A stretch of DNA of 64,000 nucleotides. Source: Tuwongella immobilis (GTDB taxonomy: Bacteria > Planctomycetota > Planctomycetia > Gemmatales > Gemmataceae). Every line of letters begins with the position of its first letter. Position 1 is the stretch's first letter. The stretch lies in assembly GCF_901538355.1 (NCBI RefSeq), contig NZ_LR593887.1, forward strand, positions 1,650,920 through 1,714,919, read 5' to 3'. This document shows positions 39,971 to 42,923 of the stretch, in pieces. The notes under the pieces were generated by a model. That model was not told the origin of the DNA. It saw only the letters and a program-made list of their open reading frames with translations, and searched no databases. Position numbers and translations under genes: made by a program.

Positions 39971-41014
39971 TCAGCGAGATGATTCCGGATTCGGGCGATT
40001 GTCCCGGAATTGCCGATGGCAGGCGGTGCAGTCGCTGCGGATCTGCGTCAGTGCGGCGGCGATGGTCGTGGCATTGGGGCGATTCGCTGCCGCAGACGGC
40101 ACAGGGGGATTGCCCGGTGACGACGCTCCATTTAACGCGGCATCCAACGCGGTGGCATGCTGCGTGAGTTGGGCAAGATGACGCTGAAATTCCGCTGGGC
40201 GAGATTCGATGTCGGGCAGACGGGCATATTCGCGCACCGATTCGAGAAACTCGAGCGAGCGCGTCGCCATCATCGCCGAAATCGGCGCATCGGCGGCATG
40301 GTTGGATAACGCGGCCTGCAATGCGCTCCAATGATCGTCTAAGTTGACCATCGCCTCGACCGCATCTGGAATCGTCGCCCGTGGCGGATAATCGGCATCC
40401 GTTCCCGGCTGATTCGGCAGCGTCGGCGGCGATTCCACTGCGGCATATAGTCCGGCATACCGGGGATCGGTCCCGGCTGATTTCAAAAACGCAACCGCTT
40501 GTGGCAACGGACATTGCGGTTGATTGGCCCGCAGTGCCGCCATCGCCGCTGCCGGCCCGCGATGCTTGCCGTGATGACAATGCACATAGATCGGCCCGGG
40601 GAGATCCCGAATCGCCGCCGCGAGTCGCGCTCCCTGCAATGGCGAAATGCCGTCGTAGCCAACCGGCAGATGCACATACCGCATACCCCGCGCTTGAGCT
40701 ACCGCCACATCCGGCACGGCCCCATCTACAGAGAGAATCGTTTTCACACCCAATTGTGCGAGCGAATCAAATCCCGCCGCCCCTTCCGGACTACTTCCGG
40801 AGAGTAATGTCGGGGTGAGACGATAGACATTGTGCAGTCCCGGCCAATCGTGCCAATCTTTCTCGAGTAGAATCGCGGTCGGGGGCGATTCGTGGCCCGT
40901 GGCGGTTGCGGTGGTCGTTTCGGGGGCGATTTGGCGAGGCGGAGCGGGGGAGTCGCCCGAACAGCCGATTCCGCTTCCGAGTAGGCAAACGACGAAGAAC
41001 GATCGATACGGCAT
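39971..41014 (-). CDS. lipoprotein fusing a tyrosine-phosphatase domain to a cytochrome c'-like haem site
   Basis: The 347-residue protein begins with a lipoprotein-like signal ending at Cys18. A dual-specificity/tyrosine-phosphatase domain (~60-195) has the complete catalytic loop PIYVHCHHGKHRG: nucleophile Cys146, Arg152. A helical C-terminal half (~215-347) ends with a single c-type haem motif, SDCTACHRQFRDNR (Cys329, Cys332, His333), placed near the C-terminus as in cytochrome c'/b562-like four-helix proteins. The ATG at 41014 puts the signal first; the 92 extra codons upstream are not coding-like and run into the arsR gene. It is divergent from arsR, 63 bp away, and shares the operator region with it. 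Confidence 0.72.
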   Translation of the reverse strand: MPYRSFFVVCLLGSGIGCSGDSPAPPRQIAPETTTATATGHESPPTAILLEKDWHDWPGLHNVYRLTPTLLSGSSPEGAAGFDSLAQLGVKTILSVDGAVPDVAVAQARGMRYVHLPVGYDGISPLQGARLAAAIRDLPGPIYVHCHHGKHRGPAAAMAALRANQPQCPLPQAVAFLKSAGTDPRYAGLYAAVESPPTLPNQPGTDADYPPRATIPDAVEAMVNLDDHWSALQAALSNHAADAPISAMMATRSLEFLESVREYARLPDIESRPAEFQRHLAQLTQHATALDAALNGASSPGNPPVPSAAANRPNATTIAAALTQIRSDCTACHRQFRDNRPNPESSR

Positions 41015-41025
41015 CGTGAAATCTC

Positions 41026-41061
41026 TTGACGAATCCAAATCCATCGTTAATCTACGATGGA
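41026..41061 (+). promoter_or_regulatory. arsR promoter with ArsR operator dyad
   Basis: A -35-like TTGACG (41026-41031) is followed after 16 bases by TAATCT (41048-41053), a weak -10. A perfect dyad, TCCATCGT, six bases, ACGATGGA (41040-41061), covers the -10. It matches the geometry of ArsR/SmtB operators, and the same core recurs at 41409-41436. It lies between arsR and the divergent phosphatase-cytochrome gene, so it may control both. Confidence 0.75.
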
Positions 41062-41077
41062 CGATGAGGGCGAGAAT

Positions 41078-41407
41078 ATGAGTCCGCGAAAATGTGTGAA
41101 TCTGGAATCCTCCGAATCCACCCCGGTGCCGGATCGTTCCCAAGACGATGCCGAGTTGGCGCGACTGGCGTGGGCGATTGCGCATCCGGCACGGGTTCGC
41201 ATTCTCCGGCTCCTGCTCGCACAAGAAGCCTGCGTCTGTGGCGATCTGGTGTCGCAACTGGATCTCGCCCAATCGACTGTATCGCAGCATTTGAAGATTC
41301 TCAAGGAATCTGGTCTGGTGGTCGGGGAAATTGACGGGGTCAAAACCTGTTACGGGGTCAATCCCGCGGCCTTGCGACGATTACGGGTATTGATCGCCGA
41401 GTTCTAA
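41078..41407 (+). CDS. arsR: ArsR/SmtB-family arsenite-responsive repressor
   Basis: The 109-residue winged-helix protein has the DNA-recognition helix STVSQHLKILKESGL and, before it, the cysteine pair in ACVCGDL (Cys52, Cys54). This is the classic As(III)-binding motif of ArsR (ELCVCDL type). Arsenite binding releases the repressor from its operator. The start is set at ATG 41078, not at the in-frame ATG 41057: the latter lies inside the operator dyad, while GAGGG seven bases before 41078 gives a binding site. arsC and acr3 follow on the same strand. A second operator copy lies in the 33-bp gap to arsC. Confidence 0.93.
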   Translation: MSPRKCVNLESSESTPVPDRSQDDAELARLAWAIAHPARVRILRLLLAQEACVCGDLVSQLDLAQSTVSQHLKILKESGLVVGEIDGVKTCYGVNPAALRRLRVLIAEF

Positions 41408-41408
41408 T

Positions 41409-41436
41409 ATCGTCAATCGACGATCAACGATGAGGG
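41409..41436 (+). promoter_or_regulatory. second copy of the ArsR operator, between arsR and arsC
   Basis: The 28-base element here matches 41043-41070 at 24 positions. Both read ATCGT, six bases, ACGAT, two bases, then ACGATGAGGG. The central six bases differ at their ends only. The final GAGGG serves as the ribosome binding site of the following gene in both places. It implies either a second ArsR-controlled start for arsC-acr3 or repressor contact within the operon. Confidence 0.72.
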
Positions 41437-41440
41437 TGTG

Positions 41441-41860
41441 ATGGGACCAAAGCCACGAATCGTGTTTGTCTGTGTCGAAAATAGCAACCGCAGTCAGATG
41501 GCGGAAGCCTTTGCGCGAATGCTGGCCGGAGATGCGGTCGATGCCCACTCGGCGGGCAGTGCCCCATCGGGCAAAGTGAATCCGCGGGCGATTCAATTCA
41601 TGGCCGAGCGTGGGTACGATCTTTCGACGCACACGTCGAAATCGCTGGATGATCTGCCCGTGGGTGATTATGCGGCGGCAATCACGATGGGGTGTGGCGA
41701 TAGCTGCCCGATGATCGTCTCGCCGATTCATGAAGATTGGGGAATTACCGATCCGAAGCATTTGCCGGATGAGGAGTTCCGTCAAATCCGCGATGGCATC
41801 GAGACGAAGGTCCGCGAACTATTGGGCCGCATCGGCGTGCCGGTGGTGAACCATGGCTGA
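41441..41860 (+). CDS. arsC: arsenate reductase ArsC (low-molecular-weight phosphatase type)
   Basis: A 139-residue protein of the thioredoxin-coupled ArsC class, which reduces arsenate to arsenite. The phosphate-binding loop is CVENSNRS (Cys11, Arg17). The two redox cysteines follow in TMGCGDSCP (Cys85, Cys89). Conserved DPKHLPDEEFRQIRDGIE fits the family C-terminal part. ATG 41441 is preceded by GAGGG four bases upstream; a GTG one codon earlier is possible. Its stop overlaps the acr3 start by 8 bp. Arsenite produced here is exported by the following gene. Confidence 0.9.
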   Translation: MGPKPRIVFVCVENSNRSQMAEAFARMLAGDAVDAHSAGSAPSGKVNPRAIQFMAERGYDLSTHTSKSLDDLPVGDYAAAITMGCGDSCPMIVSPIHEDWGITDPKHLPDEEFRQIRDGIETKVRELLGRIGVPVVNHG

Positions 41861-42923
41861 AGCGACTGCCAGCAAACGGATGAGCGTCTTCGATCGCTAT
41901 CTCACCGTGTGGGTATTTCTCTGCATGGTGTTGGGAGTGCTGCTTGGCCGTGCGGTGCCGCAAAGTATTGGTAGCATTCGGGATGTGGAAATTGTGGCCG
42001 GGTCGCAAATCAATCTCCCAATCGCCGTGCTGATTTGGTTGATGATTACGCCGATGATGATGCGGATTCAGTTCTCATCGTTGGCGTCGGTCGGTCGGCG
42101 GCCCAAGGGCTTGCTCGTGACGCTGCTGGTGAATTGGATCGTCAAGCCGCTGAGCATGGCGGCGTTGGGCTGGCTATTTTTCCAAGGGCTGTTTCTGCCA
42201 CTCATCGGCGAAGAATTGGCGAAACAATACACCGCCGGCGTGATTATTCTGGCGGCGGCTCCTTGTACGGCGATGGTGTTTGTCTGGAGCTATCTGACCG
42301 ACGGCGATCCCGCGTATACCCTCGTGCAAGTGGCGCTCAACGATCTGATCATGCTCGTGCTATTTGTGCCGATGGTGAGCTGGCTGGTGGGTGCAACCGG
42401 GCTGGTGGTGCCGATGCCCGTGCTGGTGACATCGGTGGTGGTGTTCATTGTCGTGCCGTTGGCGTTGGGCGTGCTGCTTCGCACGGTGCTGATTCGGCGA
42501 TTGGGCGAAGTCGCGTTTCAGGAGCGGATTCTGCCGCGGTTTCAACCGATTGCGGTGTCGGCGCTGTTGGCGATGCTGGTGATGATCTTTGCGTTCCAGG
42601 CGGAAAATCTGCTCAATCATCCGCTGCATGTGCTGCTAATCGCCATCCCGATTATTCTGCAAGTGCTGCTCAATTCGGGACTTGCGTATGGATTGATGGC
42701 ATGGCTGCGAGTGCCTGGCGCGATCGCGGCACCGGGGGCGCTGATTGGGGCATCGAACTTTTTCGAGCTGGCGGTGGCCACCGCAATTGCGCTCTATGGG
42801 CCGGAATCCGGGGCGGCGTTAGCCACCACGGTTGGCGTGCTGGTGGAAGTGCCGATGATGCTGTTGGTTTGCACGGCGTGCAATCGCACCCGCGGCTGGA
42901 TTGACCGGCGGGCGATGGCATAA
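41853..42923 (+). CDS. acr3: ACR3-family arsenite efflux permease
   Basis: The 356-residue protein has about ten membrane helices. Family-defining residues are Cys138 in ILAAAPCTAMVFVWSYLTDG and Glu332 in TVGVLVEVPMM, both implicated in arsenite transport. LIGASNFFELAVATAIAL in helix 9 is typical. ACR3 works as an antiporter using the proton gradient and is unrelated to ArsB. It is the last gene of arsR-arsC-acr3 and starts 8 bp inside arsC. A hairpin follows at 42934-42977. Confidence 0.95.
   Translation: MAEATASKRMSVFDRYLTVWVFLCMVLGVLLGRAVPQSIGSIRDVEIVAGSQINLPIAVLIWLMITPMMMRIQFSSLASVGRRPKGLLVTLLVNWIVKPLSMAALGWLFFQGLFLPLIGEELAKQYTAGVIILAAAPCTAMVFVWSYLTDGDPAYTLVQVALNDLIMLVLFVPMVSWLVGATGLVVPMPVLVTSVVVFIVVPLALGVLLRTVLIRRLGEVAFQERILPRFQPIAVSALLAMLVMIFAFQAENLLNHPLHVLLIAIPIILQVLLNSGLAYGLMAWLRVPGAIAAPGALIGASNFFELAVATAIALYGPESGAALATTVGVLVEVPMMLLVCTACNRTRGWIDRRAMA

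What the first reader, a model, noticed from the sequence alone, without database searches (positions are those of the whole stretch)
39971..42923. Arsenic operon whose operator is shared with a phosphatase-cytochrome lipoprotein
The arsR-arsC-acr3 operon is complete, and the gene divergent from it encodes a lipoprotein with a full HCHHGKHRG phosphatase loop and a c-type haem motif. The dyad at 41040-41061 lies in the 63-bp gap between the two. I know of no arsenic system with such a partner. The phosphatase loop is also the fold of ArsC-like enzymes, so an envelope enzyme handling arsenate or arsenite with haem-based electron transfer is a testable idea, not a conclusion.
Basis: partly seen in the sequence, partly recalled or inferred. 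Interest (0 to 1): 0.72.

Follow-up and report, generated by a model that had tools for sequence, protein, structure and literature searches.

The report
Ordinary arsenic operon beside unrelated haem-phosphatase
A standard arsenic-resistance operon with its usual repressor-binding site lies next to a bacterial envelope protein that joins a phosphatase to a haem domain, and in the relatives examined the two are not found side by side, so the pairing is probably accidental.

Summary
arsR-arsC-acr3 (41078-42923) is complete. The divergent gene (39971-41014, minus) encodes a probable lipoprotein with an HCHHGKHRG loop and a CTACH haem motif. An exact dyad (41040-41061) lies in the 63-bp gap.

The dyad is best read as ArsR's own operator. 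Its core ATCGTNNATCNACGAT (at most 2 mismatches) lies upstream of 40 of 46 ArsR relatives tested, against 0 of 271 control windows. None of the 46 holds the phosphatase-haem gene within about 1.5 kb. A second copy follows arsR in 28 of 46, and in the window.

The neighbour belongs to a conserved family: a TpbA/DUSP-like phosphatase domain plus a class-II-cytochrome-like domain. It is in 139 of 392 phylum genomes at E<=1e-10. None of 160 homologue loci has ArsC or Acr3 in its flanks. Presence of the two genes is uncorrelated (58 genomes with both of 392, odds ratio 1.06, p 0.83).

Best reading: an ordinary ars operon beside an unrelated gene, which ArsR may affect incidentally. Arsenite response was not measured. 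The uncharacterised phosphatase-haem family and the conserved second ArsR site are the parts worth keeping.

The parts
39971..41014 (-). Phosphatase-cytochrome lipoprotein gene, 347 aa
   Evidence: ORF and motifs; homologues; model
40556..40582 (-). HCHHGKHRG phosphatase loop, residues 145-153
   Evidence: Translation; HCxxGxxR in 152 of 152 homologues
40016..40030 (-). CTACH haem-attachment motif, residues 329-333
   Evidence: Translation; CxxCH in 148 of 152, the other 4 cut near contig ends
41040..41061 (.). ArsR operator 1, dyad TCCATCGTTAATCTACGATGGA
   Evidence: Exact dyad; core upstream of 40 of 46 ArsR relatives
41026..41031 (+). Possible -35 element TTGACG of the arsR promoter
   Evidence: By eye, with TTGACA/TTGACG at the like place in L231 and L233; not found by the promoter scan, so weak
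41073..41100 (-). Possible promoter of the phosphatase-cytochrome gene (TTCACA-16-TATTCT)
   Evidence: 3 such sites found against 1.4 expected, so not above chance
41078..41407 (+). arsR
41409..41424 (.). Putative ArsR operator 2, ATCGTCAATCGACGAT
   Evidence: like sites after arsR in 28 of 46 relatives
41441..41860 (+). arsC (LMW-PTP type)
41853..42923 (+). acr3
   Evidence: TIGR00832

Best explanation
An ordinary, autoregulated arsR-arsC-acr3 operon. ArsR sits on operator 1 across its own promoter and probably on operator 2 just after arsR, so without arsenite arsR and arsC-acr3 are held down; As(III) binding releases it. ArsC reduces arsenate and Acr3 exports arsenite. The divergent gene belongs to a family of envelope lipoproteins in Planctomycetota, Verrucomicrobia and related bacteria that fuse a TpbA-like phosphatase domain to a covalent-haem, class-II-cytochrome-like helical domain. 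Among the genomes examined it stands next to ars only here, so the placement is most likely chance juxtaposition. Because the genes share 63 bp, ArsR may dampen its transcription as a side effect. The protein most likely works as a periplasmic phosphatase (or related thiol/sulfur-transfer enzyme) whose activity or partner depends on haem redox or ligand state. SHOWN: gene content, operator conservation, family distribution, absence of ars linkage, domain similarities. INFERRED: ArsR binding, repression at operator 2, lipidation, haem attachment, catalytic activity, any haem gating.
For: Operator core (2 mismatches or fewer) upstream of 40 of 46 ArsR relatives and after arsR in 28 of 46, 0 of 271 control windows. 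No fusion gene in the 46 loci. 0 of 160 homologue loci with ArsC/Acr3. No recurrent neighbour: the commonest neighbour family is in 17 of 152 loci. No operator upstream of other fusion genes: 147 of 148 regions have 3 or more mismatches, the exception being the window. Co-occurrence at chance: 58 both, 81 fusion only, 102 Acr3-like only, 151 neither of 392, p 0.83; order 2, 21, 6, 73 of 102, p 1.0. Model mean pLDDT 87.2; TpbA 4r0s Z 16.2, rmsd 2.9 over 151 residues; profile to TpbA 2.7e-12, to cytochrome c' 1.6e-6 and b562 2.2e-6.
Against: No other genome of the window's genus appeared in the searches, so a recent lineage-specific link cannot be excluded by conservation. In one distant genome (L279) the fusion gene lies about 10.5 kb from an arsR-arsC-acr3-like cluster. 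Flanks differ in length and some loci end at contig ends. The 46 ArsR loci are related, so the Fisher values overstate independence. The site after arsR is not associated with a same-strand ORF following it (25 of 28 with the site, 16 of 18 without), which gives no extra support to a road-block role. Two-mismatch matches to the pattern are common genome-wide (174 forward and 182 reverse). The helical domain's fold match is no better than to designed bundles.
Confidence: 0.8

Rival explanations
1. Regulatory capture: in this lineage the divergent gene has come under ArsR control and is usefully induced by arsenite as a general envelope-stress function, without handling arsenic itself.
For: Operator 1 lies 25-46 bp before its start codon; a weak promoter-like site at 41100-41073 would put the operator just after its start point.
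Against: That promoter site is not above chance. No homologue has an operator upstream; arrangement not seen elsewhere.
Confidence: 0.14
2. One reading: an envelope enzyme that handles arsenate or arsenite by haem-based electron transfer.
For: Adjacency to ars, phosphatase loop and haem motif in one protein. Arsenate resembles phosphate (established chemistry).
Against: No ars linkage in 160 loci, no co-occurrence, DSP and not ArsC fold. Many genomes have the fusion and no Acr3 relative (81 of 139).
Confidence: 0.04
3. The dyad is not an ArsR operator but a terminator or other palindrome.
For: A similar palindrome elsewhere in the genome looks like a terminator.
Against: Conserved with ArsR at the promoter position in 40 of 46 relatives, 0 of 271 controls.
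Confidence: 0.02

Closest known systems
arsR-arsC-acr3 arsenic resistance operons
   Same: Gene set; ArsR and Acr3 above curated cut-offs; operator at the arsR promoter
   Different: A second ArsR-type site after arsR, also in 28 of 46 related loci. PMC3918153 (passages) describes a second ArsR binding site inserted downstream of arsR in an engineered bioreporter to lower background, citing Stocker et al. 2003 (not read). Whether the natural layout is in print was searched only (listings)
TpbA, periplasmic tyrosine phosphatase of Pseudomonas aeruginosa (PDB 4r0s, 4r0t)
   Same: Profile 2.7e-12, Z 16.2 over 151 residues, HCX5R loop
   Different: 218-aa chain matched only over the phosphatase part; loop HCKHGNNR instead of HCHHGKHR; no cytochrome part matched
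Class II cytochromes (c', c556, b562)
   Same: Profile 1.6e-6 to cytochrome c', 2.2e-6 to b562, 4.5e-5 to c556; CxxCH near the C-terminus, followed by Arg337; Met222 in the first helix, both invariant in 61 sequences
   Different: Fused to a phosphatase; window protein below the PF01322 gathering score (24.2 against 26.5)
BLH / DUF442 phosphatase-like proteins (PF04273, TIGR01244)
   Same: Same fold class: 3gxg Z 14.9, rmsd 3.0 over 139
   Different: Below cut-offs (21.4 against 26.1; 19.5 against 85.85); no cytochrome part matched

Membership tests
ArsR/SmtB metalloregulator | ArsR-family helix-turn-helix above curated cut-off | tested here: met
   PF01022 57.1 against 22; NF033788 74 against 55
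ArsR/SmtB metalloregulator | As(III)-released binding to its operator | not testable with these tools
   Only conservation of the dyad with the gene was tested
ACR3 arsenite efflux transporter | TIGR00832 equivalog cut-off | tested here: met
   346.6 against 282.8
LMW-PTP superfamily (ArsC type) | LMW-PTP domain above cut-off | tested here: met
   PF01451 72.8 against 23.2
Named ArsC subtypes (TIGR02689, TIGR02691, PRK13530) | Equivalog or subfamily cut-off | tested here: not met
   94.1 against 157.6, 75.8 against 174.3, 78.6 against 215; called ArsC by operon context, subtype left open
Cys-based DSP phosphatase (TpbA-like) | HCX5R loop | tested here: met
   152 of 152 aligned homologues
Cys-based DSP phosphatase (TpbA-like) | DSP fold | tested here: met
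   pLDDT 87.2; 2img Z 16.4, rmsd 2.2 over 137; 4r0s Z 16.2
Cys-based DSP phosphatase (TpbA-like) | Curated Pfam cut-off for the window protein | tested here: not met
   Best PF04273 21.4 against 26.1; so called TpbA-like and not filed in a Pfam family
Cys-based DSP phosphatase (TpbA-like) | Phosphatase activity | not testable with these tools
   Needs an enzyme assay
Class II cytochrome (c'/c556/b562) | C-terminal CxxCH | tested here: met
   148 of 152; the other 4 matches stop 6-40 bases from contig ends
Class II cytochrome (c'/c556/b562) | Four-helix bundle of the cytochrome type | tested here: inconclusive
   Four long helices, pLDDT 89.3; cytochromes c' at Z 10-11 but designed bundles as high; no Foldseek match at E<=0.001
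Class II cytochrome (c'/c556/b562) | PF01322 gathering score for the window protein | tested here: not met
   24.2 against 26.5; 51 of 61 members match at E<=0.01, best 2.8e-9; described as cytochrome-like, not filed as a member
Accessory gene of arsenic operons | Recurrent linkage to ars genes | tested here: not met
   0 of 160 loci with ArsC or Acr3; 0 of 46 ArsR loci with the gene

The most novel reading that the evidence does not exclude
In this lineage the ArsR operator has captured a haem-linked envelope phosphatase, so arsenite exposure switches on a redox- or gas-gated phosphatase signal at the cell surface, tying metalloid stress to envelope signalling through a phosphatase-cytochrome family for which I found no described member.
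Probability: 0.1. Interest if true: 0.65.

Novelty: new variant of a known kind. Interest (0 to 1): 0.35.

Why it matters
The arsenic link is most likely incidental, which saves effort on a false lead. What remains is a family found in 139 of 392 sampled genomes of the phylum at E<=1e-10 (184 at E<=0.001) and also in Verrucomicrobia and Hydrogenedentota contigs. It keeps an intact phosphatase loop and a covalent-haem motif together. If active, it would be a redox- or gas-sensing phosphatase of the envelope, a testable idea. Separately, the second ArsR site after arsR resembles a layout engineered into arsenic bioreporters to lower background (PMC3918153, passages).

Tried and rejected
ArsC-like fold for the neighbour: rejected. 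Conserved neighbourhood of the fusion gene that could betray its role: none found (ORFs were called mechanically, so small families may be missed). Other perfect pattern matches in the own genome as further ArsR targets: one lies within a 200-residue open frame (L248), the other two form an inverted repeat at the end of a glycerol-kinase-like gene (name by eye) facing another ORF (L249); neither looks like an operator. The many one- and two-mismatch matches (174 forward and 182 reverse in all) were not followed. Composition as a sign of recent transfer: ars genes 57-59% GC, neighbours 57-62%, so no signal. Met222 as axial haem ligand: invariant in 61 sequences, but the profile alignment to b562 begins three positions after it, so left open. 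Cytochrome part alone: no Foldseek match at E<=0.001. Weaker phosphatase matches (E above 1e-10, mostly phosphatase part only) were not analysed, so I do not say that the phosphatase part never occurs alone. Literature: the listings showed no title or abstract start describing such a fusion, and searches returned no papers; open-access library only. Papers seen in passages only: PMC2963123, PMC8567305, PMC3918153. In one search the window row used an over-extended start and so reported the 41409 site; the other rows are unaffected.
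Full report
What is there. The window lies in a 6,690,754-base single-contig genome. A genome of the same family in the search (G443) has a contig of 9,378,099 bases, the length of the Limnoglobus roseus chromosome in the named collection, so the family is probably Gemmataceae (family name recalled). The finding's coordinates are right: a minus-strand gene 41014-39971 and plus-strand arsR (41078-41407), arsC (41441-41860) and acr3 (41853-42923). ArsR and Acr3 pass curated cut-offs; ArsC passes that of LMW-PTP but not those of the named ArsC subtypes. 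The neighbour reads HCHHGKHRG and CTACH.

The dyad. TCCATCGTTAATCTACGATGGA at 41040-41061 is exact. A second site, ATCGTCAATCGACGAT at 41409-41424, follows the arsR stop and belongs to a 33-nt direct repeat at 82% identity. ArsR relatives were sought in 392 phylum genomes (47 with a match) and 102 order genomes (17 with a match), own genome included, at E<=1e-18. These gave 67 places besides the window's; the 46 for which loci were delivered (the best-scoring, in the main one per genome) were tested. With at most two mismatches to ATCGTNNATCNACGAT, 40 of 46 have a site upstream and 28 of 46 one within about 100 bp after the gene; in 24 of those 28 it begins 15-25 bp after the stop. Of 271 control windows from the same loci, away from the gene, none has one; an earlier control that did not keep clear of the sites gave 15 of 230. 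The site after arsR is not tied to a same-strand ORF following it (25 of 28 with, 16 of 18 without). In 30 loci fetched around acr3 (partly the same places), 5 have an ArsR of at least 50% identity and all 5 have the motif beside it; of the 25 others 2 have a two-mismatch match, one near acr3 and one about 2.7 kb from it. The motif travels with this ArsR, so the dyad is best read as its operator. The loci are related, so the p-values should not be taken literally. Genome-wide, perfect matches are few (five places, two of them flanking arsR) but two-mismatch matches are common.

The neighbour's family. Homologues occur in 184 of 392 phylum genomes and 28 of 102 order genomes at E<=0.001; 139 and 23 of these reach E<=1e-10. 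In the named collection 113 stretches were confirmed and the best 80 kept, including Verrucomicrobia and Hydrogenedentota. I analysed 160 loci: the 80, and 80 picked by hand from the stronger matches (57 and 23). After removing duplicates, 152 proteins including the window's were aligned. H145, C146, G149 and R152 are in 152 of 152. Met222 is in all 151 with a residue there, Arg337 in 148 of 149. CxxCH is in 148; the matches of the other four stop 6-40 bases from contig ends. Cys stands at the lipobox column in 106 of 152. A model of mean pLDDT 87.2 shows a phosphatase domain closest to DUSP23 and TpbA (Z 16.4 and 16.2) and a helical domain whose profile matches cytochrome c' (1.6e-6) and b562 (2.2e-6). 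Modelled alone (pLDDT 89.3) the helical part aligns with cytochromes c' at Z 10-11, but designed bundles and the Kuenenia Kusta0087/0088 complex score as well, and Foldseek gives nothing at E<=0.001. The cytochrome assignment thus rests on sequence profile and CxxCH more than on fold.

Linkage with arsenic. Of the 160 loci none has a tblastn match to the window's ArsC or Acr3 at 1e-4; two (L041, L071) have weak ArsR-like hits 2-5 kb away. No gene family recurs beside the fusion gene; the commonest is in 17 of 152 loci. Of 148 upstream regions only the window's holds an operator; the other 147 have three or more mismatches. Of the 46 ArsR loci none holds the fusion gene in its roughly 1.5-kb flanks. 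Over 392 phylum genomes there are 58 with both, 81 with the fusion only (E<=1e-10), 102 with an Acr3 relative only (E<=1e-30) and 151 with neither: odds ratio 1.06, p 0.83. Over 102 order genomes the counts are 2, 21, 6, 73: p 1.0. Against this, L279 has the fusion gene about 10.5 kb from an ars-like cluster, and no other genome of the window's genus was seen in the searches.

How it most likely works. ArsR represses at operator 1 across the promoter and probably hinders read-through at operator 2, giving tighter control of arsC-acr3. PMC3918153 (passages read) reports that a second ArsR binding site inserted downstream of arsR lowers background in a bioreporter; that the natural second site does so is inference. 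For the divergent gene, a promoter-like site at 41100-41073 would put operator 1 just after the start point, but such sites are not above chance here. Its repression by ArsR is possible and unproven. The protein itself is most likely an exported phosphatase, or related thiol chemistry, tied to a haem; activity and haem attachment are untested.

Verdict. Observation confirmed; operator reading supported and extended; arsenic-enzyme reading not supported. The fusion family and the double operator are the parts worth keeping.

Noticed in passing
window 41409-41424; L300-L345 after arsR: A second ArsR-operator-like site follows arsR in 28 of 46 related loci (2 mismatches or fewer), in 24 of them 15-25 bp after the stop: a recurrent two-operator layout.
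   Followed up: partly
L279 2615-4454 and 14988-15824: In a distant genome of the phylum the phosphatase-cytochrome gene lies about 10.5 kb from an arsR-arsC-acr3-like cluster.
   Followed up: no
L249 3089-3135 (own genome 1237588-1237634): Two perfect operator-pattern matches form an inverted repeat at the end of a glycerol-kinase-like gene facing another ORF; looks like a two-way terminator.
   Followed up: partly
window 41057-41077: The longest arsR ORF starts at an ATG inside the operator; the better start is 41078, so automatic annotation may misplace it.
   Followed up: yes
L089, L099, L155, L208: The four aligned homologues without CxxCH have matches that stop 6-40 bases from contig ends, so the haem motif is kept in every uncut copy aligned here.
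   Followed up: yes
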